Assembly: GCF_002197845.1 (NCBI RefSeq)
Contig: NZ_NIDE01000002.1
Location: 930,001-994,000 of the forward strand
Direction of reading: 5' to 3'
DNA: 64,000 nucleotides
From: Fimbriiglobus ruber
Lineage (GTDB): Bacteria > Planctomycetota > Planctomycetia > Gemmatales > Gemmataceae
The translations under genes and the position numbers were made by a program. The notes beneath the pieces are model-generated. The model searched no databases. It worked only from the letters and a program-made list of their open reading frames with translations, and was not told the DNA's origin. This document shows positions 2,654 through 59,788 of the stretch, one piece after another (positions within the stretch are counted from its first letter, which is position 1; each line of letters begins with the position of its first letter).

Positions 2654-2949
2654 GGGTGGGGCCGGCGCCCGGTGTCCCCGGGCGAGCGATCGCCACCCTG
2701 TCCGTCACGGGAGTGGGCGCGGGTCCGCCCCCGGTGTCCCCGGGCTCCCGCCCGGGTCTACGTTAGGCCGCCCCGGAGGGGCGGGAAAGCAACGCATTAC
2801 CCGGGTGCCACCCTCTCGCGAATGCGCCGGCTTTCCGCCCCTCTGGGGCGGCCTAACGTAGACCCGGGCGGGAGCCCAGGGACACCGGGCGCCGGCACCA
2901 TCTCGTGCCGGTTACTCGCCCGGGGACACCGGGCGCCGGCCCCACCCCA
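2654..2949. repeat. nested inverted repeat, family R1
   Basis: An inner pair (2731-2790 with 2830-2888) carries the signature GGCTCCCGCCCGGGTCTACG. An outer pair (about 2654-2687 with 2915-2949, core GGGGCCGGCGCCCGGTGTCC) flanks it, so the whole block can fold into a two-level hairpin. Related copies are at 23205, 43679, 59627 and 62153. It fills the gap between two minus-strand structural genes. Confidence 0.85.
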
Positions 2950-2955
2950 TGACGA

Positions 2956-3561
2956 CTACTCGTCCGGGAACGGGTTGACCGGCCCGCCCGCGCCGGCCGT
3001 GTCGATCACGGACTGGTTCAGCAGGCCGGCGACCTGGGCGGCGTCCCCGGAGGCCGGCGTCAGGTCCACGAACGGCGGGACCGGGGCGGCGACGTTGACC
3101 AGGCTGCGGTCCAGGAATTCGTAGTCGTAAATTCCGGTAACGCGGTACCGCGGGCTCACGCCGTCGCCGGGGTAGTCGATGTTCGCGGGCGAAATTTGGC
3201 CGCCCACGTAGACCGCGTTCGGGTCGGCGGGCGTCGGGTCCGGGAGTTCGGGCGGGCCGCCGACGCGGGCGACCGCGAACTCGACCCGCAAGCGGAGGCT
3301 CGCCCCGCCCAGGACGACCTTCTTCCCGACCCCCGCCGGCCGCCCCGGGGGCATGACGCGGACGCCCGGCTCGTCGATGAAGTGACTCGTCACGGTGTAG
3401 TAGTCGTACACGCCGGGCGTGTCGTCCTCGTACACCGCGTCGTCGTCGTCCGGGTCCTCCTCCGTCGACATCAGGTCGGCTTCTTCGATCAGCGCGTCGA
3501 CGACGTCGTAGTCGTCGTCGGTCCCAATGTCGTCCGTGTCGGGCGGCGGGTCGGTCGGCAT
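2956..3561 (-). CDS. acidic phage-like protein of unknown function
   Basis: This 201-residue protein starts at ATG 3561. The first 55 residues are strongly acidic (runs such as TDDIGTDDDYDVVDALIEE), and the C-terminal part is beta-rich with YDYYTVTSHFIDEPG and YRVTGIYDYEFL. It lies 12 bases downstream of the next structural gene and so is probably in the same transcript. I do not recognise a family; a tail-related role is inferred only from its position. Confidence 0.6.
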   Translation of the reverse strand: MPTDPPPDTDDIGTDDDYDVVDALIEEADLMSTEEDPDDDDAVYEDDTPGVYDYYTVTSHFIDEPGVRVMPPGRPAGVGKKVVLGGASLRLRVEFAVARVGGPPELPDPTPADPNAVYVGGQISPANIDYPGDGVSPRYRVTGIYDYEFLDRSLVNVAAPVPPFVDLTPASGDAAQVAGLLNQSVIDTAGAGGPVNPFPDE

Positions 3562-4995: not shown

Positions 4996-5131
4996 GGGCG
5001 AAAACCGCGCGGGCCTCGGCGTCATGTTTGACAAGCGGCTGTCGAGCGGTTAGCCTACCAGCCGACGGCTGGGCGGCTAAAGTAACTGCTGATGACCGGG
5101 ATAGGTTGCACGTGTGCGATCCAATTACAAG
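4996..5131 (+). other. left junction of the integron cassette array (candidate attI or secondary site)
   Basis: The first cassette starts inside CAAGTTCGGCGGAAG, with the expected G/TT cleavage point at 5131/5132. The sequence to the left (ATTACAAG) has no paired L''/L' arms, so it is not an attC. It looks like an attI end (classically ...CAAAG before TTRRRY) or a secondary G/TT insertion site. No integrase gene is adjacent; the next gene to the left is phage-like and on the other strand. A plus-strand GGTTAGCC copy at 5048 is also present. Confidence 0.5.
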
Positions 5132-5171
5132 TTCGGCGGAAGAAGACCCTCGCGAAGTAGGAGTGTGGTCC

Positions 5172-5507
5172 GTGTTGCATGACCGATACCCGGACCTACC
5201 GACGCTGCTTGCCGCAATCCGTACCCGACCCGGTATGTTCCTTGGCCGCCCGACAATCTCAGGCTTGCACCTGCTGCTCTGTGGCATCGCGTTCGCCGAA
5301 GACTTCCACCAATTACCAGAGGGCAAGCGGATTGGCGGGTTCGACCGCGAGGGATTCGAGCAGTGGGCCGAAGGCCGTCACAATCCGCGGCGTTTGTCGC
5401 TCAACTCATTCGGGTTAGCGGCTCACCTCGCCAAGTCCGAGGATGCCGGATTCGATCTATGGTTCCGATGGTACGATGAATTCGCGGGTTTGGGTGTCGG
5501 GCGTTGA
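5172..5507 (+). CDS. cassette 1 protein, unknown function
   Basis: I place the start at GTG 5172 because AGGAG at 5159-5163 sits eight bases upstream and the cassette itself begins at 5132; the frame stays open further left but would cross the cassette boundary. The product is about 111 residues and contains LLAAIRTRPGMFLGRPTISG and a C-terminal aromatic stretch (DLWFRWYDEF). The RTRPGMFLG segment recalls small bacterial proteins of unknown role that often occur near toxin-immunity genes, but I cannot name the family. It ends about 30 bases before attC1. Confidence 0.6.
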   Translation: MLHDRYPDLPTLLAAIRTRPGMFLGRPTISGLHLLLCGIAFAEDFHQLPEGKRIGGFDREGFEQWAEGRHNPRRLSLNSFGLAAHLAKSEDAGFDLWFRWYDEFAGLGVGR

Positions 5508-5536
5508 GAGCGCACAGAGACGGTGGTAGCGTCGAC

Positions 5537-5628
5537 GCCGAACAAAACGCTGCAGCAGACCCCGCCTCAAGTGTCTTGTTTGTGGGTGAGGTCGGCGTTG
5601 GCGGGGCTGCTGAGCTTGGGCGTTCGGC
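5537..5628 (+). repeat. attC site 1
   Basis: R'' GCCGAAC is at 5537-5543 and R' GTTCGGC at 5622-5628. The L'' and L' arms pair with two extrahelical bases. The centre (TCAAGTGTCTTGTTTGTGGG) is the variable terminal structure. Cleavage is expected between 5622 and 5623. Confidence 0.88.
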
Positions 5629-5649
5629 GGAAGAGGGTTGCGAGTGGCG

Positions 5650-6069
5650 ATGACCGAACCGACCATTGTGGCGAGTAATGGTACCGCAGTTGAAAGCGGG
5701 GGCGTCTACCTGACGTATAGCGGTGACCCCACCAGTCCCTATCGCGTCGCCAAGGTCGTCAGTGTCGGCGGCGGACCAGCCGGCGTCGGATGGGACTGTC
5801 AAGTCGGTTCGGACATGACTCCGATTTTGTCCCCCGATCTGTGGCTCAAGCTGTACGTGACTTGCCACGCAGATTCGCCAGGGCAACCGTCCTCGGACGA
5901 GCCATTCGTTATCATGCCGGTGTCGGTTGCCATGTTTCTGGCATGGGGACCACCCAAGTTTCCTATCCGCATGGGCACCGAGGCCATTACCGTCGAGGAG
6001 CTGGGCGCACGGGTTGCAGACTGGCACAAGCACGCCGAACAAAACGCTGCAGCAGACCCCGCCGCGTGA
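5650..6069 (+). CDS. cassette 2 protein, unknown function
   Basis: The start is ATG 5650 or the in-frame GTG 5644, which fits better the AGAGGG at 5632-5637. The product is about 139 residues, begins MTEPTIVASNGTAVESGG and is beta-rich in its N-terminal half. The last residues (QNAAADPAA) are encoded by the R''/L'' part of attC2, as is common for integron cassettes whose stop codon lies inside attC. No family recognised. Confidence 0.65.
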   Translation: MTEPTIVASNGTAVESGGVYLTYSGDPTSPYRVAKVVSVGGGPAGVGWDCQVGSDMTPILSPDLWLKLYVTCHADSPGQPSSDEPFVIMPVSVAMFLAWGPPKFPIRMGTEAITVEELGARVADWHKHAEQNAAADPAA

Positions 6070-6127
6070 CGGCTCCATATGGGCGTAGTTGCTTCAGCGG
6101 CGCGGCTGCTGAGCTTGGGCGTTCGGC
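6034..6127 (+). repeat. attC site 2
   Basis: R'' GCCGAAC is at 6034-6040 and R' GTTCGGC at 6121-6127. The arms match the family consensus; the centre GCGTGACGGCTCCATATGGG is of the second central type, shared with sites 3, 6, 9 and 13. Confidence 0.88.
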
Positions 6128-6146
6128 GGAAGAGAGCGTTCAGCAG

Positions 6147-6599
6147 ATGAACACGGATTCCGGCGTGAACGTCATCGTGTTCGAGGTGCTGATCAGCCGC
6201 CGGCTACAACCAATGCTCGGGGAGTGTTCGACTCGGGTCACGGACGGTCTCCGTAAGGTCTGGGGCGAGCTGGCGGCAGGGTTTGACCTCCGCCCCGCGA
6301 ATGTCCGCCGTGTGTATTCGCAGTGGGAGCCCACGCCAGAGGATCGCGCGTTCCTCGCGTCCGAGTTCCCGCCGGCAGTGAGGGTCAGTTACTCGTTCCG
6401 TCGCCCGCCGTGCCGCCGCGAATGGGGCCGACCGACGGAGGAGTTCGTCCGCGCGGTCGATGCGTTCGAGCGTGCCTTGGAGGAGCATGAGCGGGCCGCG
6501 AACGGGGGGGCCAAGGTCGGAGCACAGGGGCGGCCGTGGTGGCAGTATTGGCACTGGCCTGGTGAGGGGAACAATCCGTTCATCGGCAAGCCGGACTGA
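6147..6599 (+). CDS. cassette 3 protein, unknown function
   Basis: The start is ATG 6147, 20 bases after the cassette boundary. The product has 150 residues, with a helical N-terminal half (MNTDSGVNVIVFEVLISRRL) and a Trp/Pro-rich C-terminus (RPWWQYWHWPGEGNNPF). No family recognised. Its attC (site 3) is split by an IS110 element beginning about 20 bases after the stop. Confidence 0.65.
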   Translation: MNTDSGVNVIVFEVLISRRLQPMLGECSTRVTDGLRKVWGELAAGFDLRPANVRRVYSQWEPTPEDRAFLASEFPPAVRVSYSFRRPPCRREWGRPTEEFVRAVDAFERALEEHERAANGGAKVGAQGRPWWQYWHWPGEGNNPFIGKPD

Positions 6600-6656
6600 G
6601 TAGTGGCGCAGACGCCGAACAAGGTAGCGTGTTGTCAAGGGGCAAAAACGCATGAT

Positions 6657-7688
6657 TCATCCGCCGGTCGGGGGATGGTCGGGCGCACCCCCGACCGGCG
6701 GCCGAACCATGCTCCACGCCGGGTCGAACGGAGCCCGGTTCTTGAGGACCCCGTAGCAGATCATGACCAACTTCCGCATGCACGCCCCGACGGCTTGCAT
6801 CTTGGCCTTCCCGGCGGCCACCAGGCGATCATAGAACCGTTTCAACAGGGGGTTGAACCGGATCGCCGTTAGGGTCGGCAGGTACAGGGCCTTCCGGAGC
6901 CGGGCGTTCCCGGTCTTGGACAGGCGGGTGCGGGTGCGGACACTGGTCCCGCTCCGGTGCTCCCGGGGGGCCAACCCGGCGTACGCGGCCGCCGCCTGGG
7001 CCGACGGGATGTGGGCGACGGGCGGGAGTTCGGCCAGGACGGTCGACGCGGTCTGGTCCCCGACTCCGGGGATGGACGCCAGCAGAACCCGGTCGGCGGC
7101 CATCTCCGGGGTGGCCGCGATGAGAGCGTCGGCGGCGGCCTGCATGGCGTCGGCCTCCTTGCCCAGGAGCTTGATGACGCGGGCCACGGACTTGCGGGCG
7201 GCCGGGGTCAGGAGCGGGCTATCGAGCCGCGTTTTTTCTTGCGCGGCTAGGGCCCGGACGTCGTCCCGGCGGCGGACCAGGGCCTGGAGTTCGCGGACCG
7301 CGGGGGTCGGCGGGACCCAGGCCGGGGGGCGGTGATCGCGGACGTACCCGGCGATCAGGCGGGCGTCGGCCTTGTCCGTCTTGTTCCCCCGCCCGCGGAC
7401 GACCCCGGCGTACTTGACCCGGACCGGGTTGATCACACTGACCCGCCGGGCGGCTGCGTGCAGGTGGGTGGCGAGAGCATCCTCGTACCCGCCGGTCGAC
7501 TCCATCCCGTAGTGGACGTCGGCCCCGCTCGCGTGCCCGTCGACCCACGCGACCAGGGCCGCGTGCCCGTCCGGGTCGTTCGCGAAGGCGTGGTCGCGGG
7601 CCTTCCCGTCCGGGGTCAGGAGGCACGCGTCGAGGGTCTTCTTGCTGACGTCGATGCCGACGAACGTGGTCGTGGTGGTGGTGCCCAT
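6657..7688 (-). CDS. IS110-family recombinase (DEDD transposase), copy 1
   Basis: The 343-residue protein starts at ATG 7688. The RuvC-like DEDD domain is at the N-terminus: D13 in FVGIDVSKKTLDA, E63 in YGMESTGGYE and D residues in NKTDKADARLIAGYVRD. The C-terminal Tnp20 domain has LASIPGVGDQTASTVLAEL and LAPREHRSGTS with the serine required in this family. It catalyses excision and RNA-guided insertion of the element as a circle. It is intact and its protein is the same as that of copy 2. Confidence 0.95.
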   Translation of the reverse strand: MGTTTTTTFVGIDVSKKTLDACLLTPDGKARDHAFANDPDGHAALVAWVDGHASGADVHYGMESTGGYEDALATHLHAAARRVSVINPVRVKYAGVVRGRGNKTDKADARLIAGYVRDHRPPAWVPPTPAVRELQALVRRRDDVRALAAQEKTRLDSPLLTPAARKSVARVIKLLGKEADAMQAAADALIAATPEMAADRVLLASIPGVGDQTASTVLAELPPVAHIPSAQAAAAYAGLAPREHRSGTSVRTRTRLSKTGNARLRKALYLPTLTAIRFNPLLKRFYDRLVAAGKAKMQAVGACMRKLVMICYGVLKNRAPFDPAWSMVRPPVGGAPDHPPTGG

Positions 7689-7870
7689 GGCGTCCCTCCC
7701 TTACAGCTTCACGAATGCGGGGTCCACACGGGGTGGCCCGCAGGGTAGCGTCCGAAGTCGAGGAGCGCCGGCGGTCGGTCCGCGACCTTGTTCACGAGGT
7801 CGGAGCCTCATCCGCTGCATGCGGTTATCCGACCGCCGGGCTCGTCCTCACGACTACTTCACAGTAACAT
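7689..7870 (-). ncRNA. candidate bridge RNA of IS110 copy 1
   Basis: About 180 noncoding bases lie between the element end and the recombinase start, the place where IS110-group elements encode their bridge RNA. The minus-strand sequence folds into hairpins (for example GACCT...AGGTC). One loop has GAACAAGG, equal to the left side of the attC target, and another has TGCAGCG, the complement of the right side (CGCTGCA). The assignment of guides is inference. Confidence 0.5.
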
Positions 7871-7975
7871 GTGAAGCGCTGCAGCAGACTCCGCCGCGTG
7901 ACGGCATCACATGGGCGGAGTCGTTCGAGCGGCGGGGCTGCTGAGCTTGGCCGTTCGGCGGCAAGAGGATTGCGG

Positions 7976-8503
7976 ATGGAAACGGGATTGGCACTCGATA
8001 ATTCTCGGTGGGAAGACCTCCGCACCCGCAACGGAAACGCCACTTGGGTGCCAGGTTGGCTTCGGCAACTGGACGCCAATCCGCTCGATCACAAACTCTT
8101 CTCCGACGAATGGGCCGCTCTCTGCTCGGAAGGTTCAACTTGGTCTGCTGCCTACGCCGCGTTCCCGCATCTGGTGCGAATTGCATCCCGCGTGCGACCC
8201 GAAGAACGCTTCGAGTATGTTGTCGTACTCGGCCTGATTGTCAGGGATCAGTGCTACGGAGATTCGGCCGGCCCGATGGGACTGCGGCCGTATTTGGCGG
8301 CCGATTTTCAGGCGGCGATCGGACCCGCGCTGCAACTCGCGGCGGAGGTGCTGGGCGTGGCCCGACCTGACGAGCAGGAACTGCGTTACGGGCTGATGGC
8401 GGTCACGGCCCTTCAGGGGTATTACCAGTTGGCAGAGTTCATCGATCAGCTTGATGATGGCGATGTGTGCCCGCCATACGCGGAGTTCCTCGGCCGTAAG
8501 TGA
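7976..8503 (+). CDS. cassette 4 protein, unknown function
   Basis: The start is ATG 7976 after AAGAGG at 7962-7967. The product has 175 residues and is helical. It contains DEWAALCSEGSTWSAAYAAF followed by PHLVRIASRV, a pattern reminiscent of small HEAT-like or immunity-associated proteins, and the C-terminus is acidic. I cannot assign the family. The gene ends seven bases before attC4. Confidence 0.65.
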   Translation: METGLALDNSRWEDLRTRNGNATWVPGWLRQLDANPLDHKLFSDEWAALCSEGSTWSAAYAAFPHLVRIASRVRPEERFEYVVVLGLIVRDQCYGDSAGPMGLRPYLAADFQAAIGPALQLAAEVLGVARPDEQELRYGLMAVTALQGYYQLAEFIDQLDDGDVCPPYAEFLGRK

Positions 8504-8509
8504 AGGTAC

Positions 8510-8602
8510 GCCGAACAAATCGCTGCAGCAGACCCCGCCTCAGGCGTTGTGTTTGTGGGTGGGGGTCGGCCTTAGCGGGGCTGCTGAGCTCGGGCGTTAG
8601 CC
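8510..8602 (+). repeat. attC site 4 (R' GTTAGCC)
   Basis: R'' is GCCGAAC at 8510-8516 but R' is GTTAGCC at 8596-8602, so the two simple-site ends do not match each other. This is expected because R' belongs to the next cassette, whose own site begins with the complementary GGCTAAC at 9194. Confidence 0.9.
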
Positions 8603-8615
8603 GCAAGAGGCCAGC

Positions 8616-9179
8616 ATGGGATCTTTGTTTCGCTATATCGCCGACGACATCGCAGCCCGAGCCGAAAGCGGTGACTGCCCTGGTTGTCAGCGAAGTGCCC
8701 CACTTTTCCCGATAGAAGCGGCAATTGACGACGACGAATGGAGCGTGGGGGTCGATTGCCCAGAGGAAATCTGTTCCGACTGTATCCGTCGCCTGCCACT
8801 TCGCAAGTTCGCTCCCAGGACAGGCGAGAAGGTCGTACAGGAACTCATTAACACTCACCACCCCAAGGGAACGCTTAGCGGTGAACAACGCGTCAACAGG
8901 CTCGTTTCAATTTGCGATGAATACCGTCGCACGCCAGCGTACCCGCTATTTCTTCAAAACGAGGACTGGCCCTGGTGCTGTGGAGATTTCTGCGAGTATC
9001 TCGGCGTACCGAATAGCTACGAGGAATCGATCCGCATCGGAAGCGAGATGAAGTTGTGGCGCGGCGATTACAAACAGTTGTACGGCGACATGACGTTGGA
9101 GCCAGAATCACTGAATGAGGTTTGCCTCTTTCGTTGTCTGAAGTGCGGCAAAGAGGTGTTTACTTGGCAAATGACGTAG
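8616..9179 (+). CDS. CbrC-like (UPF0167 family) protein, cassette 5
   Basis: The start is ATG 8616 after CAAGAGG. The 187-residue product has an N-terminal CxxC pair (GDCPGCQRSAPL), a second pair (EICSDCIRRL), a PLFLQNEDWPWCCGDFCEYL core and a third CxxC (FRCLKCGKEVF). This arrangement fits the CbrC/UPF0167 family, known from a colicin-tolerance protein; the biochemical role is unknown. Three Cys pairs suggest bound zinc. The base composition is less GC-rich than the phage genes, consistent with separate acquisition. Confidence 0.7.
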   Translation: MGSLFRYIADDIAARAESGDCPGCQRSAPLFPIEAAIDDDEWSVGVDCPEEICSDCIRRLPLRKFAPRTGEKVVQELINTHHPKGTLSGEQRVNRLVSICDEYRRTPAYPLFLQNEDWPWCCGDFCEYLGVPNSYEESIRIGSEMKLWRGDYKQLYGDMTLEPESLNEVCLFRCLKCGKEVFTWQMT

Positions 9180-9193
9180 CCGGCAAGTGCAGC

Positions 9194-9285
9194 GGCTAAC
9201 AAAACGCTGCAGCAGACCCCGCCTCAAGGGTCTTGTTTGAACATGTAGTCAGCCGTGGCGGGGCGGCTGAGCTCGGCCGTTCGGC
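9194..9285 (+). repeat. attC site 5 (R'' GGCTAAC)
   Basis: R'' GGCTAAC is at 9194-9200 and R' GTTCGGC at 9279-9285. R'' is the exact complement of the 5' end of the same cassette (TTAGCC at 8597), which proves that 8597-9279 moved as one cassette. Confidence 0.92.
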
Positions 9286-9300
9286 GGAAGAGAGCGCACG

Positions 9301-9759
9301 ATGCGGTTCCTGTTCGAGTTAGCCGTGTTCGGGGTAATCGCCGGCGTCGCTTTCGCCGTCGTGTTCAGCCTCACCTGGGCGGTCGGCAGTCCGTTCGGGC
9401 TGGAGAGCAAGCGGGCGGCGCTGTTCGCCGGAGTGTTCCTATGCTTCTGGCTGCCCGCCTTCGCCAACGTCCACATTGCGGTCAGCGGGAGCGGCGGCGA
9501 GTCGGGTCGAGAGCGTGTGTGCGCTGGAGTGAGAGCCTTCGGGATGCTCGTGTGCTCGGCAGTCCTCACCGCACCGTTGGCGGCCTCGGGATTCACGTGG
9601 TCGCTGGGCATCCCGCTGTTCCTGGCCGGGCAGGTGTTCTGGTGGGGGTCGTGCTTCTTCGAGGACAGGTTCCGCCGCGGTACACACGCGGTCTCCACTG
9701 GGGGAGCGGCTCCAGACGCCGAACAAGGTAGCGTGTTGTCAAGGGGCAAAAACGCATGA
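9301..9759 (+). CDS. cassette 6 membrane protein, C-terminus altered by IS110
   Basis: The start is ATG 9301 after GGAAGAG. Four hydrophobic segments are visible (about residues 2-26, 39-60, 82-101 and 103-123), so the protein is an integral membrane protein. The last 16 or so residues are read from attC6 and the left end of IS110 copy 2, so the native C-terminus has been replaced. No family recognised. Confidence 0.6.
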   Translation: MRFLFELAVFGVIAGVAFAVVFSLTWAVGSPFGLESKRAALFAGVFLCFWLPAFANVHIAVSGSGGESGRERVCAGVRAFGMLVCSAVLTAPLAASGFTWSLGIPLFLAGQVFWWGSCFFEDRFRRGTHAVSTGGAAPDAEQGSVLSRGKNA

Positions 9760-9760
9760 T

Positions 9761-10792
9761 TCATCCGCCGGTCGGGGGATGGTCGGGCGCACCCCCGACC
9801 GGCGGCCGAACCATGCTCCACGCCGGGTCGAACGGAGCCCGGTTCTTGAGGACCCCGTAGCAGATCATGACCAACTTCCGCATGCACGCCCCGACGGCTT
9901 GCATCTTGGCCTTCCCGGCGGCCACCAGGCGATCATAGAACCGTTTCAACAGGGGGTTGAACCGGATCGCCGTTAGGGTCGGCAGGTACAGGGCCTTCCG
10001 GAGCCGGGCGTTCCCGGTCTTGGACAGGCGGGTGCGGGTGCGGACACTGGTCCCGCTCCGGTGCTCCCGGGGGGCCAACCCGGCGTACGCGGCCGCCGCC
10101 TGGGCCGACGGGATGTGGGCGACGGGCGGGAGTTCGGCCAGGACGGTCGACGCGGTCTGGTCCCCGACTCCGGGGATGGACGCCAGCAGAACCCGGTCGG
10201 CGGCCATCTCCGGGGTGGCCGCGATGAGAGCGTCGGCGGCGGCCTGCATGGCGTCGGCCTCCTTGCCCAGGAGCTTGATGACGCGGGCCACGGACTTGCG
10301 GGCGGCCGGGGTCAGGAGCGGGCTATCGAGCCGCGTTTTTTCTTGCGCGGCTAGGGCCCGGACGTCGTCCCGGCGGCGGACCAGGGCCTGGAGTTCGCGG
10401 ACCGCGGGGGTCGGCGGGACCCAGGCCGGGGGGCGGTGATCGCGGACGTACCCGGCGATCAGGCGGGCGTCGGCCTTGTCCGTCTTGTTCCCCCGCCCGC
10501 GGACGACCCCGGCGTACTTGACCCGGACCGGGTTGATCACACTGACCCGCCGGGCGGCTGCGTGCAGGTGGGTGGCGAGAGCATCCTCGTACCCGCCGGT
10601 CGACTCCATCCCGTAGTGGACGTCGGCCCCGCTCGCGTGCCCGTCGACCCACGCGACCAGGGCCGCGTGCCCGTCCGGGTCGTTCGCGAAGGCGTGGTCG
10701 CGGGCCTTCCCGTCCGGGGTCAGGAGGCACGCGTCGAGGGTCTTCTTGCTGACGTCGATGCCGACGAACGTGGTCGTGGTGGTGGTGCCCAT
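9761..10792 (-). CDS. IS110-family recombinase, copy 2
   Basis: The 343-residue protein is identical to copy 1, with D13, E63 and the Tnp20 serine region intact. Identity between the two copies implies very recent movement. Confidence 0.95.
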   Translation of the reverse strand: MGTTTTTTFVGIDVSKKTLDACLLTPDGKARDHAFANDPDGHAALVAWVDGHASGADVHYGMESTGGYEDALATHLHAAARRVSVINPVRVKYAGVVRGRGNKTDKADARLIAGYVRDHRPPAWVPPTPAVRELQALVRRRDDVRALAAQEKTRLDSPLLTPAARKSVARVIKLLGKEADAMQAAADALIAATPEMAADRVLLASIPGVGDQTASTVLAELPPVAHIPSAQAAAAYAGLAPREHRSGTSVRTRTRLSKTGNARLRKALYLPTLTAIRFNPLLKRFYDRLVAAGKAKMQAVGACMRKLVMICYGVLKNRAPFDPAWSMVRPPVGGAPDHPPTGG

Positions 10793-10974
10793 GGCGTCCC
10801 TCCCTTACAGCTTCACGAATGCGGGGTCCACACGGGGTGGCCCGCAGGGTAGCGTCCGAAGTCGAGGAGCGCCGGCGGTCGGTCCGCGACCTTGTTCACG
10901 AGGTCGGAGCCTCATCCGCTGCATGCGGTTATCCGACCGCCGGGCTCGTCCTCACGACTACTTCACAGTAACAT
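10793..10974 (-). ncRNA. candidate bridge RNA of IS110 copy 2
   Basis: This is identical to the 7689-7870 segment upstream of copy 1 and carries the same two guide-like loops matching the attC target. Confidence 0.45.
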
Positions 10975-11078
10975 GTGAAGCGCTGCAGCAGACCCCGCCG
11001 CATGACGGCTCTATAGTGGTGGAGTTGCTTCAGCGGCGGGGCTGCTGAGCTTGGGCGTGCGGCGGCGGAGAGGTGGTC

Positions 11079-11537
11079 ATGGGCGTGGGCCTATTCGTGA
11101 TGTTCGACCCAGACATGAACAGGCCGACCGAGTTCACGTCCAATCCGGACGGCCGGACGGTTGCGGCGGCCACCGCCGTGCTCGACGCGATCGCCGCGGC
11201 CAAGGGGTTGTCGCCGTTTACCCGTTTCATCCCGGATCTTGAGGGGTTCCTGGCCAACGATCCGGATCTCAAGGGCCTCCTGGACGACGACTCTGACTTT
11301 AAAGAATTGCTGGGCAACGGCCCGCCGGCGGGGGAGCCGCCCGAGTTGTGGTTCGACCCGGCTGACGGGCGGACCGAGTTGAGCATGTTGATTGAGGCCC
11401 TGAGGATGGAGCCGGCGTGGGCCGACGGGCAACCGGAAGGATGGGCCGGGGACGTCGCCGAGTGCCTGGAGCGGTTGCGGGCTGATGTGGAGGCCGCCGG
11501 CCGGGCGGGGGCACGGTTTAGCCTGAGCTACACCTGA
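11079..11537 (+). CDS. cassette 7 protein, unknown function
   Basis: The start is ATG 11079, five bases after GGAGAGG at 11067-11073; an in-frame GTG at 11073 overlaps that site. The 152-residue product begins MGVGLFVMFDPDM and has repeated FLANDPDLKGLL/LLDDDSDFKELL acidic helices, then an ELSMLIEALRMEPAWADGQP region. No family recognised; cytosolic. Confidence 0.65.
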   Translation: MGVGLFVMFDPDMNRPTEFTSNPDGRTVAAATAVLDAIAAAKGLSPFTRFIPDLEGFLANDPDLKGLLDDDSDFKELLGNGPPAGEPPELWFDPADGRTELSMLIEALRMEPAWADGQPEGWAGDVAECLERLRADVEAAGRAGARFSLSYT

Positions 11538-11550
11538 TGGTGCCGCAGAC

Positions 11551-11642
11551 GCCGAATCATGCGCTGCAGCAGACCCCGCCTCAAGTGCTCCGTCTGTGGG
11601 GCCGGTCGGCGGTGGCGGGGTTGCTGAGTTTGGCCGTTCGGC
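11551..11642 (+). repeat. attC site 7
   Basis: R'' is GCCGAAT (11551-11557, last base off consensus), and R' GTTCGGC is at 11636-11642. The L'' and L' arms are as in site 1. Confidence 0.82.
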
Positions 11643-11658
11643 CTTGGGGAGCTTCCTA

Positions 11659-12348
11659 ATGGAATCGGTCCTCGTTCAGATTGCTCTGTACGTGGCCGTG
11701 GCCGGGGTGTGGGGCTGGCTGGGCCGTGTCGTTGACCGCGACCTCCCGCGTGTTATCAAGGCTTCGCACAGGCTCGGCCTCCAATGTCCCCTGCTCTTTC
11801 ACCGGCTGACGGGTTGGGGTCGGTGGGTCTTGGTCGGTGGGGTGATCGTAGGGGTAGTCGGTGTCTCCACCGGGGTGGGGGTAGCGGCCGCTGTCGGGCT
11901 GTTGGTATCGGCGATCGGGCTGCTGACGTATCTCTACGCCGGGGTGTTTCGATTACAGAGGACCGTCCGGCATGCGGCGGCCAACCTGCAACAGCTGATT
12001 CTGCGATTCGGGTCGGACGAAGTCGGCATTGCGGCGGGCGCATTCTGTTCGGAGCGGACATGGCACGGACTATTCCGCCCAACCTCCGGCATGCCTGTGC
12101 GGGTCCGTGAGTACATCGCCTTCTGCGAGGAATGGCACGACCGGCTGCACGCGGAGCGCCCGTGCAGTGCCGATGAGTTCAAACCGTGGGCGGATATCCA
12201 AGCCTCGTCCGAGTGGCGGGCTTGCGGCCCTGGCGGACGGGTACGGTCGGTCGAGGGGCCGGTGTTCATCCAGGGCGGGGTCACTTGGGGCGTGCCGCCC
12301 GACGCCGAGCCAAGCGCTGTACACGATAACGACACCAGTCGGCGTTAG
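11659..12348 (+). CDS. cassette 8 membrane protein
   Basis: The start is ATG 11659. The 229-residue product has an N-terminal hydrophobic segment (about residues 4-23) and two close spans in the middle (about 55-72 and 75-95, rich in Val/Gly), followed by a soluble C-terminal domain with EYIAFCEEWHDRLHAERPCS. No family recognised. It is one of the larger cassettes (about 855 bases). Confidence 0.6.
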   Translation: MESVLVQIALYVAVAGVWGWLGRVVDRDLPRVIKASHRLGLQCPLLFHRLTGWGRWVLVGGVIVGVVGVSTGVGVAAAVGLLVSAIGLLTYLYAGVFRLQRTVRHAAANLQQLILRFGSDEVGIAAGAFCSERTWHGLFRPTSGMPVRVREYIAFCEEWHDRLHAERPCSADEFKPWADIQASSEWRACGPGGRVRSVEGPVFIQGGVTWGVPPDAEPSAVHDNDTSRR

Positions 12349-12406
12349 TGTGCGCGGCTCTCATCGCTGGGCGGGTAGAGCTACAGGTGCGGGTATCTGC
12401 GAGTAC

Positions 12407-12497
12407 GCCGAGCAAAAGCTGCAGCAGTCCCCGCCTCAGGTGTCTTGTCTGTGGGTGCGGTCGGCCGTGGCGGGGTTGCTCAGTTCGGGCGTTCGGC
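12407..12497 (+). repeat. attC site 8
   Basis: R'' is GCCGAGC (12407-12413), one base off, and R' GTTCGGC is at 12491-12497. The arms GCTGCAGCAGTCCCCGCC and GGCGGGGTTGCTCAG still pair. Confidence 0.82.
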
Positions 12498-12517
12498 GGT
12501 GGAAAGCTGAGGGTAGG

Positions 12518-12949
12518 ATGTCGTTCGCGGAACACCTAGCGAAGGTCGTCGCCGAGCAGTTGGAGCGGTTTGTCACGCTCAACCGGCACCAACTAGCCGG
12601 GCACGTGGCCAACCTCGACTTCTGGCTGGCTCAGGTGCGTCACGCGCTGGATGTGATCGACGGCTACCAGGAGCGGTTCCGGCGGCTCAAGGCCGGACAG
12701 GTCGAGTACGTTGCCCGGCACAAGACTCGAGTGTCCTCGTCGCTCGACCCTGATGTCGCCACTGTGCCGGACCTGCCCCGCCGTATACCTGACGGGAACC
12801 TTCGTGACGCCCGCCGAGCCGTGGTCGACGCGGCGTATCGGTTCCTGGTAAGGCTGTGCAACGATGGGTTGATCCCGGAGGAAGAGCTGCGCTCGCGGTG
12901 TAGCGGCCTCGGAATTGGCTTCGAGGCTTCTGACTTGCGGCGCGCCTGA
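12518..12949 (+). CDS. cassette 9 protein, unknown function
   Basis: The start is ATG 12518 after AGGGTAGG. The 143-residue product is largely helical (MSFAEHLAKVVAEQLERFV; ANLDFWLAQVRHALDVIDGY) with a second helical region (DARRAVVDAAYRFLVRLCND). No family recognised. The stop lies one base before attC9. Confidence 0.65.
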   Translation: MSFAEHLAKVVAEQLERFVTLNRHQLAGHVANLDFWLAQVRHALDVIDGYQERFRRLKAGQVEYVARHKTRVSSSLDPDVATVPDLPRRIPDGNLRDARRAVVDAAYRFLVRLCNDGLIPEEELRSRCSGLGIGFEASDLRRA

Positions 12950-12950
12950 C

Positions 12951-13044
12951 GCCGAACAGGGCGCTGCAGCAGACCCCACCGCGTGACGGCTCCTCATGGG
13001 CATGGTAGCATCAGCGGCGGGGCTGCTGAGCTCGGGCGGTCGGC
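12951..13044 (+). repeat. attC site 9
   Basis: R'' GCCGAAC is at 12951-12957. The R' end reads GGTCGGC (13038-13044), with the central T of the core changed, so cleavage at this site may be weak. The arms are conserved. Confidence 0.8.
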
Positions 13045-13059
13045 GGCGGGGGGATTTGT

Positions 13060-13191
13060 GTGGGGCTCGCAATCGGGCTTGCCGTCACTCTCGTTCCGGG
13101 CTCGCTATTGCTGCTCCGGCTCGTCCACTACGCGCTCGATCGTGTTTGCCTAGGTCATGCCCGACGGTTCAGCAGACGGCGGGGCATGTAG
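13060..13191 (+). CDS. cassette 10 small membrane peptide (43 aa)
   Basis: The frame starts at GTG 13060 with GGGGGGAT just upstream and ends at TAG 13189. The product MGLAIGLAVTLVPGSLLLLR continues into an Arg-rich C-terminus, a layout of one membrane span with a positive tail. The cassette (13039-13242) is the smallest in the array. Small hydrophobic cassette peptides could be toxins or membrane modulators; that is inference. Confidence 0.45.
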   Translation: MGLAIGLAVTLVPGSLLLLRLVHYALDRVCLGHARRFSRRRGM

Positions 13192-13248
13192 GCTTCCCAG
13201 GGTTTCAGGCTCGCCAGCCGCCGCGGCAGGTGAACGGTATTGTTCGCC
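13159..13248 (+). repeat. attC site 10 (divergent)
   Basis: The right end is R' GTTCGCC (13242-13248). The left end is a degenerate GCCCGAC near 13159. The arms GTTCAGCAGACGGCGG and CCGCCGCGGCAGGTGAAC pair at both ends with an internal loop. The site differs in sequence from the main family, but its R' is the exact complement of the R'' of the next site (13673). Confidence 0.6.
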
Positions 13249-13308
13249 GGCTAGTTTTTGTCCGCTGCGTGCGGGCCGGGGTTGGATTCCTCTTTAGGAA
13301 AGGCACAT

Positions 13309-13653
13309 ATGGCCAAGAAAAACGAATTTGCACCCTGCCAACTCATCGACAACGAGGACGGCACCTACAGCCTGATCTTCACCGACTTCGACGGGTCGGC
13401 GGCGGTTTTTGAGGAAATGGACCAAGAAGGCGGCGGCTATGGTTGGCATGGTGTCGTCGATGCCCTTGTTCGGATGAAGGCGCCGAAGCTAAAGAAGAGG
13501 TTGGATTACGACCCAGAAGCGGGCATGTTTGTCGCTCTCAGCAAGGACAAAGAAGCTCTCGGGCAGGTGGCGGAACTGATTCGAAATGCCGTCAATGACC
13601 CAAAACTCTTGAAAGAAGCGATCAAGAAAGCGGACCCGGAACTGATGGATTGA
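13309..13653 (+). CDS. Imm51-like immunity protein, cassette 11
   Basis: The start is ATG 13309 after AGGAAAGG. The 114-residue product begins MAKKNEFAPCQLIDNEDGTY. It contains GYGWHGVVDALVRMKAP, then LDYDPEAGMFVALSKDKEAL and a C-terminal helix, which closely follows the Imm51 pattern (Immunity protein 51) of polymorphic toxin systems. It would neutralise a cognate toxin in the cytosol; no toxin is next to it, so it may act as an orphan protector. The upstream leader (13249-13308) is longer than in other cassettes. Confidence 0.75.
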   Translation: MAKKNEFAPCQLIDNEDGTYSLIFTDFDGSAAVFEEMDQEGGGYGWHGVVDALVRMKAPKLKKRLDYDPEAGMFVALSKDKEALGQVAELIRNAVNDPKLLKEAIKKADPELMD

Positions 13654-13672
13654 GGTTGTACGATGGGTCGCT

Positions 13673-13769
13673 GGCGAACCAACGGCTGAAGCTGACCGGG
13701 GCCGCCATCCTGGTTTCGCGCGGCATCAGGTCTTGCGGGCGGCCCCGGCAGATTAGCCGAGCGTTCGAC
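13673..13769 (+). repeat. attC site 11 (divergent type)
   Basis: R'' GGCGAAC is at 13673-13679 and R' GTTCGAC at 13763-13769. The arms GGCTGAAGCTGACCGGGGCC and GGCGGCCCCGGCAGATTAGCC pair with extrahelical bases. The primary sequence is unlike the other sites while the architecture is the same, suggesting that the cassette came from another host's array. Confidence 0.8.
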
Positions 13770-13781
13770 GAAGGAGGTAGC

Positions 13782-14189
13782 GTGGCAGAGTTCGTGATCG
13801 GCAACACCAACTTCGGGGTGGACCCCAATAAGTCCTCGTTCAAACTGTTGACGAAACCGCACGGTCGCGTGGTTTTGGATGTCGAGATCAACGGTGATCA
13901 GTCGGCTTATGATGCAGCGTCTACGGCGGAAGACTCGGAGTGGTTTTGGACGCTGTACCCACCCCGCTTCTACGTGTATTCAGAGCTGGAGCGCGCCACC
14001 GAAGGCCACACCCTGACAGTGCAATTTTCCGCCGCTGAAAACGAATCGGCTGAGATGGCGATATACATGATGAATCACAACCGCGTCGCGGACGTGACCT
14101 TGACGATCTACGGTAACCGGCTCACGGCGTCGGGCCTCGTAGACCTGATGGGTCAGTCGGCTGAATTCCGCATCGACTGGTCTCGGTAG
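13782..14189 (+). CDS. cassette 12 protein, unknown function
   Basis: The start is GTG 13782 with a strong AAGGAGG at 13771-13777. The 135-residue product begins MAEFVIGNTNFGVDPNKSSF, is beta-rich (GRVVLDVEINGDQSAYDA; GHTLTVQFSAAENESAEMAI) and lacks membrane spans. An all-beta immunity-like or lectin-like fold is possible; no family recognised. Confidence 0.65.
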   Translation: MAEFVIGNTNFGVDPNKSSFKLLTKPHGRVVLDVEINGDQSAYDAASTAEDSEWFWTLYPPRFYVYSELERATEGHTLTVQFSAAENESAEMAIYMMNHNRVADVTLTIYGNRLTASGLVDLMGQSAEFRIDWSR

Positions 14190-14196
14190 CCAAGAC

Positions 14197-14273
14197 GCCG
14201 AACAATGCGCCGCAGCTGACCCTCATGGGCGTGGTCGTATGAGCGGCGGGGCTGCTGAGCTGGGGCGTTCGGC
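14197..14273 (+). repeat. attC site 12 (shortened)
   Basis: R'' GCCGAAC is at 14197-14203 and R' GTTCGGC at 14267-14273, but about 17 bases of the L'' side are missing, leaving 77 bases. The right arm GGCGGGGCTGCTGAGC is intact. Recombination through this site may be impaired. Confidence 0.78.
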
Positions 14274-14339
14274 CACAAGGCGTTCGCCTGCTCGCCGAGG
14301 TGTTTGCCCAAAAAAAGTCACTGTGCTGTCGATTTCACT

Positions 14340-14364
14340 CCTCCTCATTCGACGAATGAGGAGG
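14340..14364 (+). promoter_or_regulatory. perfect 12-bp dyad upstream of the VOC gene
   Basis: CCTCCTCATTCG and its complement flank a single A. The dyad lies in the unusually long 190-base leader of cassette 13. It could be an operator or a small hairpin. It suggests that this cassette may carry its own regulation. Confidence 0.45.
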
Positions 14365-14463
14365 AACCGCGGTTCGGAACTGGCTTAGACCATCCGGACG
14401 CCCGGCTTCTGGATCGTTTGGGATCTTGACCCACCGCAACACTCGACAGGAAAACAAAGGACC

Positions 14464-14868
14464 ATGAACAAACAGATCTTCCTCAACATCCCCGTCGCCG
14501 ACTTGCCGAAATCGATGTCCTTTTACCAGGCACTCGGGTACTCACTCAATCCGCAGTTCACCGGCGATTCGGCCGCGTGCGTCGTCATCAATGAGACGAC
14601 CTTCGTCATGCTGGGCACGCATGCCAAGTTCCGCGAATTCACCCCCAAGGCCATCTGCGACACGACCCAGGCTGTGGAAGTCCTGATCAACCTCAGTTGC
14701 GAGAGCCGACAGGAGGTCGACGATCTCGTCGCGAAGGCCGTCGCCGCGGGAGGCTCGACCTACGACAAGGCGGAAGACTTTGGATTCATGTATACGCACA
14801 GCTTTGTCGACCCCGACGGCCATGGGTGGGGGCTCTTTCACATGAGCGCGCCGCCGACGAATCCATGA
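14464..14868 (+). CDS. VOC-fold (glyoxalase/bleomycin-resistance-like) protein, cassette 13
   Basis: The start is ATG 14464 with AAAGGA upstream. The 134-residue protein begins MNKQIFLNIPVADLPKSMSF and has the paired beta-alpha-beta-beta-beta layout of VOC proteins, ending SFVDPDGHGWGLFHM with the typical DPDGH motif. Members bind a metal and act as glyoxalases, dioxygenases or drug-binding resistance proteins; the substrate cannot be told from sequence. Resistance or detoxification proteins are common integron cargo. Confidence 0.82.
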   Translation: MNKQIFLNIPVADLPKSMSFYQALGYSLNPQFTGDSAACVVINETTFVMLGTHAKFREFTPKAICDTTQAVEVLINLSCESRQEVDDLVAKAVAAGGSTYDKAEDFGFMYTHSFVDPDGHGWGLFHMSAPPTNP

Positions 14869-14938
14869 TGCTTGTATGGTAGGTGGGTACTTTGTGCGGC
14901 GAGTCCGCGCGGTAACGTTAGCGTGCCCAACAAGGCAG

Positions 14939-15033
14939 GCCGAACAAAACGCCGCAACAAACCCCGCCGCGTGACGGCTCCTCATGGGCGTTGTTGCTCC
15001 AGCGGCGGGGGCTGCCGAACTCGGGCGTTCGAC
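14939..15033 (+). repeat. attC site 13
   Basis: R'' GCCGAAC is at 14939-14945 and R' GTTCGAC at 15027-15033. The arm ACGCCGCAACAAACCCCGCC has drifted from the consensus. This is the last clear attC. Confidence 0.8.
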
Positions 15034-17833: not shown

Positions 17834-17934
17834 TTACCTCGGCATGAAATAAGCTCAAAAATTGAAGCACAAAAGCACGGGGAGCCGCGTTCGTTTCGGA
17901 TTTAAATTGTTGAGCTTATTTCATGCCGAGGTAA
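17834..17934. mobile_element. MITE related to the IS630 element at 32952
   Basis: This is a 101-base element with perfect 25-base terminal inverted repeats (17834-17858 and 17910-17934) beginning TTACCTCGGCATGAAAT. It is flanked by TA duplications (17832-17833 and 17935-17936) and has no coding capacity. Its outer 17 bases equal the ends of the full IS630 at 32952-34096, so that transposase can probably move it. Confidence 0.9.
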
Positions 17935-18028
17935 TAAATGGCGCCCGGGCGCATAGACGAGCGGGCGCCCCCAATGTTCCCCAGACGAAAGGCTTGCTTC
18001 TTCGCCAAGTTCGCGTCGAACCGACTGC

Positions 18029-23163: not shown

Positions 23164-23204
23164 GGTCGGACCCTTGATGTCTGCGCGGCGGGAATGGGTC
23201 AGTG

Positions 23205-23350
23205 CCCGGTGTCCCCGGGCTCCCGCCCGGGTCTACGTTAGGCCGCCCCCGAGGGGCGGAAAACCCGCACGCTTCTTCTCAGACGCTTGTTTTAAGCCCC
23301 TCTGGGGCGCCCTAACGTAGACCCGGGCGGGAGCCCGGGGGCACCGGGGG
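23205..23350. repeat. inverted repeat, family R1
   Basis: Arms starting CCCGGTGTCCCCGGGCTCCC at 23205 pair with the mirror ending near 23350. The internal GGGGCGGAAAACCC and AAGCCCCTCTGGGGC continue the stem. It fills the intergenic space between two capsid-region genes. Confidence 0.85.
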
Positions 23351-23378
23351 CGGGCTTCCACCCGTGACGAGCGAAGGC

Positions 23379-27511: not shown

Positions 27512-27795
27512 TCACAGGCAGTCCACCCGGCGCATCTGTTTCAACCAGTGGACGGCGTACTCCAGCCCCTTCGACCCGACGATCATCGACCGCCCGTTCT
27601 CTTTGTAGGCTGCGTACCGGTCATACTTCCGGACCTGTGGGCAGGTTTCGGGATTCACCGGACGAGGTAGATCACCCAGCCCCAGTCGTACGTCTCGGTC
27701 CGGTCCGGGTCGACCCGGGCCGGGCCGCAGAAATCGTCCTCGCTCGCGTGGCCCCAAGTGGATAAGACTTCGCTCACGGCATCGTCGCAAGTCAT
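27512..27795 (-). pseudogene. Imm35-like immunity gene, frameshifted
   Basis: From ATG 27795 it reads MTCDDAVSEVLSTWGHASED, then TETYDWGWVIYLV, and hits a stop. The homologous continuation NPETCPQVRKYDRYAAYKEN, SMIVGSKGLEYAVHWLKQ is in the next frame. Compared with the paralogue at 27847-28182, one C is missing in the VP codon pair near 27655. Confidence 0.75.
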
Positions 27796-27846
27796 TCGAG
27801 ATGCCTCGCTATCGGGTGAGCCATAAGACCGCCGCGGCGGGCACGT

Positions 27847-28182
27847 TTATCCGTGTGTGTCGGAATCCTCAGCCCACCGCGGGCTCCCGGGCGGCCAGTC
27901 GATCGGCTTGGTGTACACCTTGGTCAGCTCGTAGACGGCGTACTCCAGCGCCTTCGACCCGACGACGATCGACCGCCCGGTCACGTTGTGGATCGCGTAA
28001 GGGTAGGACTTCCGGCCCTGTGGTGGGCAGTTCTCGGGGTTCACCGGGACGAGGTAGATCACCCAGCCCCAGTCGTACACCTCGGTCCGGTCCGGGTCGA
28101 CCCGGGCCGGGCCGCCGAAGTCGTCCTCGCACGCGTGGCCCCAGTAGGCCAAGACTTCCCGCTCGGCTTCGTCGAGTGTCAT
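27847..28182 (-). CDS. Imm35-like immunity protein
   Basis: The start is ATG 28182 after GGAGCAAAT. The 111-residue protein begins MTLDEAEREVLAYWGHACED and has VYDWGWVIYLVPVNPENCPP, YPYAIHNVTGRSIVVGSKAL and EYAVYELTKVYTKPIDW. The Trp-rich strand followed by a G-S-K/T turn is typical of Imm35/YrhB-type immunity proteins, which accompany papain-fold toxins. The upstream gene on the same strand ends in such a toxin domain. Confidence 0.72.
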   Translation of the reverse strand: MTLDEAEREVLAYWGHACEDDFGGPARVDPDRTEVYDWGWVIYLVPVNPENCPPQGRKSYPYAIHNVTGRSIVVGSKALEYAVYELTKVYTKPIDWPPGSPRWAEDSDTHG

Positions 28183-28194
28183 ATTTGCTCCGGG

Positions 28195-28326
28195 TTACAG
28201 GTCTCGCAGATCGTTTCCCGATCTCGTCCCGAATTTCGGGTGCGACAAGTCTGGCACACCATAATCGTCCTCGCTTACCGGTCCCCACGAAGAGAGGACC
28301 TCACGCACGGCTTCGTCATATGTCAT
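28195..28326 (-). pseudogene. truncated Imm35-like gene (43 aa)
   Basis: ATG 28326 opens MTYDEAVREVLSSWGPVSED, the same N-terminus as the intact paralogues, then switches to DLSHPKFGTRSGNDL and stops at TAA 28195. The second part equals the leader repeat also found upstream of the 28709 gene, so a deletion between direct repeats removed its C-terminal two thirds. Confidence 0.65.
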
Positions 28327-28421
28327 TCAAGTTGCCTCGGTAAGAAGGGGTCATAGGACCGCCGCGAGGGACACGTTTATCGACGGGAGCCGGAGCCCGC
28401 CGTCAACCCCCGCTCTGCGGG

Positions 28422-28709
28422 TCACCAGTCGATGGGCTTGGTGTACACCTTCTTCAGCTCGTAGATGGCGTACTCCAGTCCCCTCGTCCCGACGACGGTC
28501 GACTGCCCGGTCTCTTTGTGGATCGCGTACTCGTCGTACTTCTGATTCAGCGGGCACGTTTCGGGATTTATTGGGACGACGTAGACCACCCAGCCCCAGT
28601 CGTACGTCTCGGTCCGGTCCGAATCGACTCGGACCGGGCCGCAAAAATCGTGCTCGCTCGTATGACCCCAGAAGGACAAGACTTCGCGCTCGGCCTCGTC
28701 GCGTGTCAT
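28422..28709 (-). CDS. Imm35-like immunity protein
   Basis: The start is ATG 28709 after GGAGCAAAT. The 95-residue product begins MTRDEAEREVLSFWGHTSEH and is clearly paralogous to 27847-28182 (TETYDWGWVVYVVPINPETC; GQSTVVGTRGLEYAIYELKK). It is the copy closest to the toxin tail that ends at 28847 and is probably the cognate antidote. Confidence 0.75.
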   Translation of the reverse strand: MTRDEAEREVLSFWGHTSEHDFCGPVRVDSDRTETYDWGWVVYVVPINPETCPLNQKYDEYAIHKETGQSTVVGTRGLEYAIYELKKVYTKPIDW

Positions 28710-28846
28710 ATTTGCTCCGGGTTACAGGTTTCGCAGATCGTTTCCGATCTCGCTCCGGTGTTCGGCGGTGACAAGTCTGGCCCATCATATTAGCAACTTT
28801 ATGACGTCGCGCGTTCAACGAATATCGCGCGTCAAGTCTCCCGTCG

Positions 28847-59215: not shown

Positions 59216-59626
59216 AGCGCGACTCCTACAGAACCTGCCGGCATGGGTTGGGTTCATCGCGCACCGACCCCGCGGGCGGGGCCGGTGCGACCAGTCGGTC
59301 TGCCGTGTAAGGGCGGGACACCCGACCGCCCGGCGTGGCTTTTTCACGCTGTCCGCCGGGTCGCACCCGCACAGCGCCCGAGGGGGATCGCGCGCCTACT
59401 CGGCGCGCACCCGCGACTACCCCGGCCGGACGTCGGACACCACCGGGCGTTCGGGAACAGGGTCTCACACGTCTGTCGGCCCTGACCCGTGGGCCTCGCC
59501 CCCGACGCCCGCGGGCCCGCTCGGGAGAACACGGCTGCCAATCAGAGGCTGGGGAAGACACGTCGCCAGGTCGTCAAGTCCTCACGTCATCAGGTCGGAA
59601 GAAAGAAACGGAAGCGGCCGTTTCCC
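59216..59626. other. gap with no supported gene
   Basis: The roughly 410 bases between the sigma factor start and repeat R1 contain only Arg/Pro-rich frames without plausible starts. There is a short palindromic stretch (CCGACCCCGCGGGCGGGGCC near 59262) and short GTCGTCAAGTC repeats near 59570. I see no RNA gene. Confidence 0.5.
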
Positions 59627-59788
59627 GCCCCTCTGGGGCGGCCTAACGTAGACCCGGGCGGGAGCCCGGGGACACCTGCCCGCGTCACCCTCCCGTTCCC
59701 GCTCGTCGGTCGGGGCTCGTGTCGCTTCCCCGGTGTCCCCGGGCGGGTGCCCGGGTCTACGTTAGGCCGCCCCGGAGGGGCGGAAAAC
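59627..59788. repeat. inverted repeat, family R1
   Basis: The left arm CGTAGACCCGGGCGGGAGCC and a right arm with GGCGGGTGCCCGGGTCTACG pair over about 55 bases each. The copy is nearly the same as at 62153-62315. Confidence 0.85.

What the first reader, a model, noticed from the sequence alone, without database searches (positions are those of the whole stretch)
8597..9285. Core co-variation proves cassette behaviour
The cassette starting TTAGCC (8597) ends in an attC with R'' GGCTAAC (9194), while both flanking cassettes use TTCGGC and GCCGAAC. The cassette starting TTCGCC (13243) likewise ends in an attC with GGCGAAC (13673). Only a circular-cassette model predicts that the far ends of one segment complement each other.
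Basis: seen in the sequence. Interest (0 to 1): 0.8.

Follow-up and report, generated by a model that had tools for sequence, protein, structure and literature searches.

The report
Ordinary integron cassette with variant ends
The segment is a mobile gene cassette in an integron-type array, and its two matching ends show that it once was a circle, as the textbook model says; this is ordinary, though the array sits apart from the genome's integrase gene and is repeatedly hit by an insertion sequence that specialises in cassette junctions.

Summary
Window 8597-9279 starts TTAGCC and its own attC has R'' GGCTAAC. Both integrated junction sites pair only 5/7, but the joined circle (9194-9279 + 8597-8602) and the joined empty site (8510-8596 + 9280-9285) both pair 7/7. 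No other cassette of the array shows this. An independent relative repeats it: GTTAGCC at the start, GGCTAAC in its own attC. The 13243 example is not secure: no attC fold precedes it, and GTTCGCC occurs in 20% of other cassettes. Over 216 cassettes paired core change is rare; cores mostly drift on one side. "Proves" is too strong, and the rule is the standard cassette definition (PMC2674596). Better proof: cassette bodies shared between arrays, with homology starting at the R' core whether attI or attC lies upstream. The array is an intI-less integron array headed by an attI-like site (window 5100-5137); a full-length IntI lies on another contig. Nine of nine full or nearly full copies of an IS110-family element in this genome sit in the same position inside attC sites.

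The parts
5100..5137 (+). attI-like site at the head of the array, core GTTCGGC 5131-5137
   Evidence: Matches a motif found after intI in this genome (C14, C18) and in G002 and G030; no intI nearby.
5537..5628 (+). attC, R'' GCCGAAC, R' GTTCGGC
   Evidence: Bottom-strand fold z = -3.6, model R1 113 bits (the site is in the training set).
6034..6127 (+). attC, R'' GCCGAAC, R' GTTCGGC
   Evidence: training set of R1
6614..7959 (+). attC split by an IS: R'' GCCGAAC 6614-6620, remainder about 7876-7959
   Evidence: Right part scores 60 bits; junctions.
6621..7878 (-). IS110-family insertion sequence; transposase 6657-7688 on the - strand, long non-coding region 7689-7880 upstream of it
   Evidence: PF01548 and PF02371; 1281-bp block identical to the second copy.
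7954..8596 (+). upstream neighbour cassette, ends TTCGGC / GCCGAAC
8510..8602 (+). integrated left attC of the finding, R'' GCCGAAC, R' GTTAGCC, 5/7 paired
8597..9279 (+). the cassette of the finding (683 bp), start TTAGCC
   Evidence: Circle and empty site both 7/7.
8616..9179 (+). cassette gene, 187 aa, UPF0167 (PF03691)
   Evidence: Pfam E 7.1e-9, above the gathering score.
9194..9285 (+). integrated right attC of the finding, R'' GGCTAAC, R' GTTCGGC, 5/7 paired
9718..11063 (+). second attC split by the same IS (IS 9725-10982), R' GTGCGGC
11551..11642 (+). attC, R'' GCCGAAT, R' GTTCGGC
   Evidence: training set of R1
12407..12497 (+). attC, R'' GCCGAGC, R' GTTCGGC
   Evidence: training set of R1
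12951..13044 (+). attC, R'' GCCGAAC, R' GGTCGGC
   Evidence: training set of R1
   Evidence: No attC-like fold upstream; 20% background for GTTCGCC; Pfam E 1.8e-27.
13673..13769 (+). attC of a divergent type, R'' GGCGAAC, R' GTTCGAC
   Evidence: Fold z = -3.1, 29 bits with a model not trained on it.
14197..14273 (+). attC, R'' GCCGAAC, R' GTTCGGC
   Evidence: 53 bits, not in the training set
14939..15033 (+). last attC found, R'' GCCGAAC, R' GTTCGAC
   Evidence: training set of R1

Best explanation
Window 5131-15033 is an array of integron gene cassettes headed by an attI-like site but without an adjacent integrase gene. Each unit runs from the TT of one R' core to the G of the next. The 8597-9279 cassette was inserted as a circle whose attC had paired variant cores (GTTAGCC / GGCTAAC). 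Recombination at G^TT put half of the variant pair at each end of the integrated segment and mispaired both junction sites. Shown here: site anatomy, restored pairing in the circle and empty site, a second such cassette in another genus, and cassette bodies shared between arrays. Inferred: that an integron integrase, perhaps the one on contig C14 acting in trans, did the insertion.
For: Repeated 78-97 bp sites with R''/R' and L''/L' arms and an extrahelical base on the bottom strand. Only the 8597 cassette has 5/7 at both junctions and 7/7 for both the circle and the empty site. Independent repeat in G011. Of 24 variant-start cassettes 6 hold the complement of their start, 0.98 expected from other cassettes. 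Model R1 finds 55 such sites in the genome. Full-length IntI at C14:1281594-1282535, 447 bits against a cut-off of 265. The same ORF-less cassette sits in four arrays, with homology starting at the R' core under both attI and attC; a G002/G012 cassette is 92% identical across genera.
Against: Over all informative cassettes own-end and same-site matching tie 12:12, and the reverse test (variant R'' predicts the start) gives 2 of 22 with 1.93 expected, so the co-variation is not a general signal here. No relative carries the 8597 body, so its presence/absence could not be shown; its two protein homologues in the family (43% and 37% identity) have no attC within about 1.5 kb. The array has no intI.
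Confidence: 0.9

Rival explanations
1. The paired cores are a coincidence of drift in a decaying array: GTTAGCC arose at 8596 and GGCTAAC at 9194 independently.
For: Most variant cores are one-sided, and the tie of 12:12 in informative cassettes is what drift gives.
Against: Two matched substitutions on each side, at the ends of one unit, restore 7/7 in both the circle and the empty site; a second genus shows the same pair; GGCTAAC is in about 2% of other cassettes.
Confidence: 0.06
2. Pairing is kept by selection on each integrated attC hairpin, not by a circular history, so R'' and R' of one site should match.
For: Two sites have both sides changed and matched within one site: C14:615557 GCCGAGC/GCTCGGC and C2:531317 GCCGAAT/ATTCGGC.
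Against: In the case at hand both integrated sites are mispaired (5/7) while the circle and empty site are perfect. No strict same-site case was found in the filtered set, against 5 own-end cases, four of which only keep the consensus.
Confidence: 0.03
3. A transposon-like unit with short inverted repeats near its ends, unrelated to integrons.
For: Complementary ends by themselves would fit.
Against: R'' lies about 80 bp inside the end, in an attC-type hairpin repeated along the array; shared cassettes start at the R' core; the unit's only long ORF on the cassette strand is a UPF0167 protein, not a transposase.
Confidence: 0.01

Closest known systems
Integron gene cassette / attC (59-base element), as defined in PMC2674596
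   Same: Unit from the T of one R' to the G of the next; R'' RYYYAAC and R' GTTRRRY; bottom-strand hairpin with an extrahelical base; the attC belongs to the circular form.
   Different: attC sequence type specific to this clade (CGCTGCAGCAGACCCCGCC ... GGCGGGGCTGCTGAG).
CALIN (cluster of attC lacking an integrase; PMC8618304, PMC9024848)
   Same: Several attC, no intI nearby.
   Different: Has a recognisable attI-like site at its head, and a full-length IntI exists elsewhere in the genome; PMC9024848 notes that attI sites outside class 1 are poorly described and not detected by IntegronFinder.
Treponema chromosomal integrons with intI in the direction of the cassettes (PMC3607928)
   Same: The C14 and C18 integrons of this genome also have intI reading towards attI and the array.
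   Different: Other phylum; several further attI-headed arrays in one genome.
IS1111-attC insertion sequences (Tetu and Holmes 2008, Post and Hall 2009, cited in PMC11187229)
   Same: DEDD transposase; insertion at one fixed place in attC sites.
   Different: The long non-coding region is upstream of the transposase gene, as in the IS110 type, not downstream as in IS1111.

Membership tests
Integron cassette array | attC sites with R''/R' and L''/L' arms and a bottom-strand hairpin | tested here: met
Integron cassette array | cassette boundary at G^TTRRRY, shared cassettes with the same boundary in different contexts | tested here: met
   (other cassettes of the same genome and of relatives, not 8597 itself)
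Integron cassette array | own ends complementary (circular attC) | tested here: met
   8597 cassette 7/7; the 13243 cassette inconclusive
Complete integron | adjacent integron integrase gene | tested here: not met
   No intI match in or near the array; a full-length copy lies on contig C14, 447 bits
Complete integron | attI site next to the first cassette | tested here: met
   Motif at 5100-5137 equals the one placed after intI in G000, G002, G030; recombination activity not tested
Integron cassette array | IntI-dependent excision and insertion | not testable with these tools
   Needs a bench assay
IS1111-attC group | insertion at a fixed place in attC | tested here: met
   9 of 9 full or nearly full copies; homologues in G034, G001, G088 likewise
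IS1111-attC group | long non-coding region downstream of tnp (IS1111 type, PMC11187229) | tested here: not met
   About 190 nt upstream of tnp, about 36 nt downstream, so IS110 type

The most novel reading that the evidence does not exclude
One genome carries six attI-like sites heading cassette arrays, four without any intI, so that a single integrase would serve several scattered arrays in trans; the attI itself may have been copied as a unit, since two intI-less copies begin at the same GTTAGTGGGAT box just after the place of the intI stop codon.
Probability: 0.25. Interest if true: 0.55.

Novelty: new member of a known kind. Interest (0 to 1): 0.25.

Why it matters
The core co-variation is a clean textbook illustration from an under-studied lineage and needs no new concept. 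What could matter is the setting. A genome with one full-length integrase gene and several attI-headed arrays without one is a natural test of whether integrase works in trans on distant attI sites; off-target insertion by an IntI elsewhere in the genome is one of the published ideas for the origin of CALINs (PMC8618304). The IS110-type element found only in attC sites, with putative guide segments matching attC, may be a guided element that specialises in integrons.

Tried and rejected
Rfam scan of the window: nothing at gathering scores. Simple regular-expression attC scan: too strict, replaced by a covariance model. Presence/absence of the 8597 cassette at DNA level in 58 relatives: only attC matches; protein homologues at 37-43% identity in two genomes have no attC nearby. 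Own-end versus same-site statistic over 216 cassettes: tie, because one-sided drift makes both equally likely. Reverse test from variant R'': no excess. Claim for 13243 as an independent proof: rejected. Collection scan for the two-box attI: one hit, a Planctomycetota MAG with only the last 34 aa of intI left upstream.

Full report
What was claimed. Two segments have ends that complement each other but not their neighbours: TTAGCC at 8597 with GGCTAAC at 9194, and TTCGCC at 13243 with GGCGAAC at 13673. All four words are present at the stated places.

Anatomy. The window is G000:C2:930001-994000 of a 12.4 Mb genome in 20 contigs; it is probably a planctomycete (inference: the only exact two-box attI match in the named genome collection is a Planctomycetota MAG). 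From 5537 to 15033 it holds twelve attC-type sites, two of them split by an IS. A model built on eight of them finds 55 sites in the genome; scores of the eight training sites are high by construction. The sites show R'' and R' outer arms, L'' and L' inner arms with one extrahelical base, and fold on the bottom strand.

Case 1. In its present place the 8597 cassette has mispaired sites on both sides (5/7 each). Joining its own ends gives GGCTAAC...GTTAGCC, 7/7, with all seven outer pairs in the predicted bottom-strand fold; joining the flanks gives GCCGAAC...GTTCGGC, also 7/7. No other cassette of the array shows this pattern. In relative G011 a cassette starting GTTAGCC contains GGCTAAC 481 bases on, at the start of an attC-like stretch that the model had missed. 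This second case was met while checking an apparent counter-example, not by a planned search.

Case 2. No attC-like fold precedes 13243 (z +1.1), although the attC at 13673 itself folds well (z -3.1). The word GTTCGCC is found in 20% of other cassettes. If 13243 is a cassette start, the unit 13039-13242 has no recognisable attC. The case fits the model but is not evidence for it.

How general. In 216 distinct cassettes (this genome and G002, G010, G011, G012, G022, G034), 169 had canonical GTT/AAC on the three cores compared, and 150 of these start with GTTCGGC. In the 29 informative ones own-end and same-site pairing tie 12:12. Variant starts: 6 of 24 contain their complement, 0.98 expected from the other cassettes; two of the six clearly sit in attC contexts. 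The control uses related cassettes and is rough. Variant R'': 2 of 22, 1.93 expected. So the paired change is rare, and its force comes from case 1 and its G011 parallel. Two sites elsewhere in the genome have matched changes within one integrated site, which the circular model does not predict.

Better evidence for cassettes. Homologous cassette bodies recur in different arrays, many of them aligned from base 1 after the R' core. In this genome one ORF-less cassette occurs on C14, C17, C18 and C19; upstream of the core the sequences are attI in two and attC in two, and homology begins at GTTCGGC. A cassette of G002 is 92% identical over 417 bp to one in G012, a different genus.

Setting. A full-length IntI is on C14; on C18 a second copy is interrupted by another mobile element. 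Both read towards the array, an orientation reported as atypical in Treponema (PMC3607928). After the intI stop codon comes a conserved region ending GATAGnTTG...CnAATnA...GTTCGGC, also found after intI in G002 and G030. The same motif stands at window 5100-5137 and at five other places; four of the six, the window's among them, have no intI. I read it as attI; no activity was tested.

The IS. Two copies in the window share a 1281-bp identical block and interrupt attC at the same place. All nine full or nearly full copies in the genome do so in the same orientation, and homologues in G034, G001 and G088 show the same right junction. The long non-coding region lies upstream of the transposase, as in IS110 types (PMC11187229). 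It contains TGCAGCG and, 26 nt later, GAACAAGG in transposase sense, which match the two sides of the attC target (CTGCAGCG / CCTTGTTCGGC); this resembles seekRNA guide segments but is an inference from short matches.

Comparison with the known. The unit and its boundary rule are the published definition of a cassette: from the first T of one R' to the G of the next, the attC being that of the circular form (PMC2674596). Integrons in Planctomycetes are on record (PMC2426708, PMC8352920). The finding is a new member of a known kind. The attI-headed, intI-less arrays and the attC-targeting IS110-type element are the parts I would follow.

Noticed in passing
window 6621-7878 and 9725-10982; also C2:996263, C14:1279906, 1277970, 1274576, C17:25708, 29246, C18:73116: IS110-family element, all nine full or nearly full copies inside attC sites at the same place and orientation; its upstream non-coding region holds short segments matching both sides of the attC target.
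   Followed up: partly
window 5100-5137; C2:995121, C14:590268, C14:1281456, C17:25110, C18:75107: Six attI-like sites in one genome, only two with an intI (one of these interrupted).
   Followed up: partly
L027 13090-15850 (C18): Second intI copy split by another mobile element with a transposase-like reading frame; attI and array follow it.
   Followed up: no
L134 4395-4600 (G043 C9): An attI-like site without intI with another GTTCGGC core about 170 bp upstream, as if the attI were itself a cassette-like unit.
   Followed up: no
C14:1279825-1279523, C17 and C18 first cassettes, C19:629.5k: One ORF-less cassette family present in four arrays of the same genome.
   Followed up: partly
window 17836-17940: Long inverted repeat (TTATTACCTCGGCATGAAATAAGCTCAA ... 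TTGAGCTTATTTCATGCCGAGGTAATAA).
   Followed up: no
window 2721-2960, 23196-23370, 59625-59785: Dispersed palindromic G+C-rich repeats (CCGGGCTCCCGCCCGGGTCTACGTTAGGCCGCCCC).
   Followed up: no
window 27533-28789: Three to four imperfect direct repeats of a roughly 380-530 bp unit.
   Followed up: no
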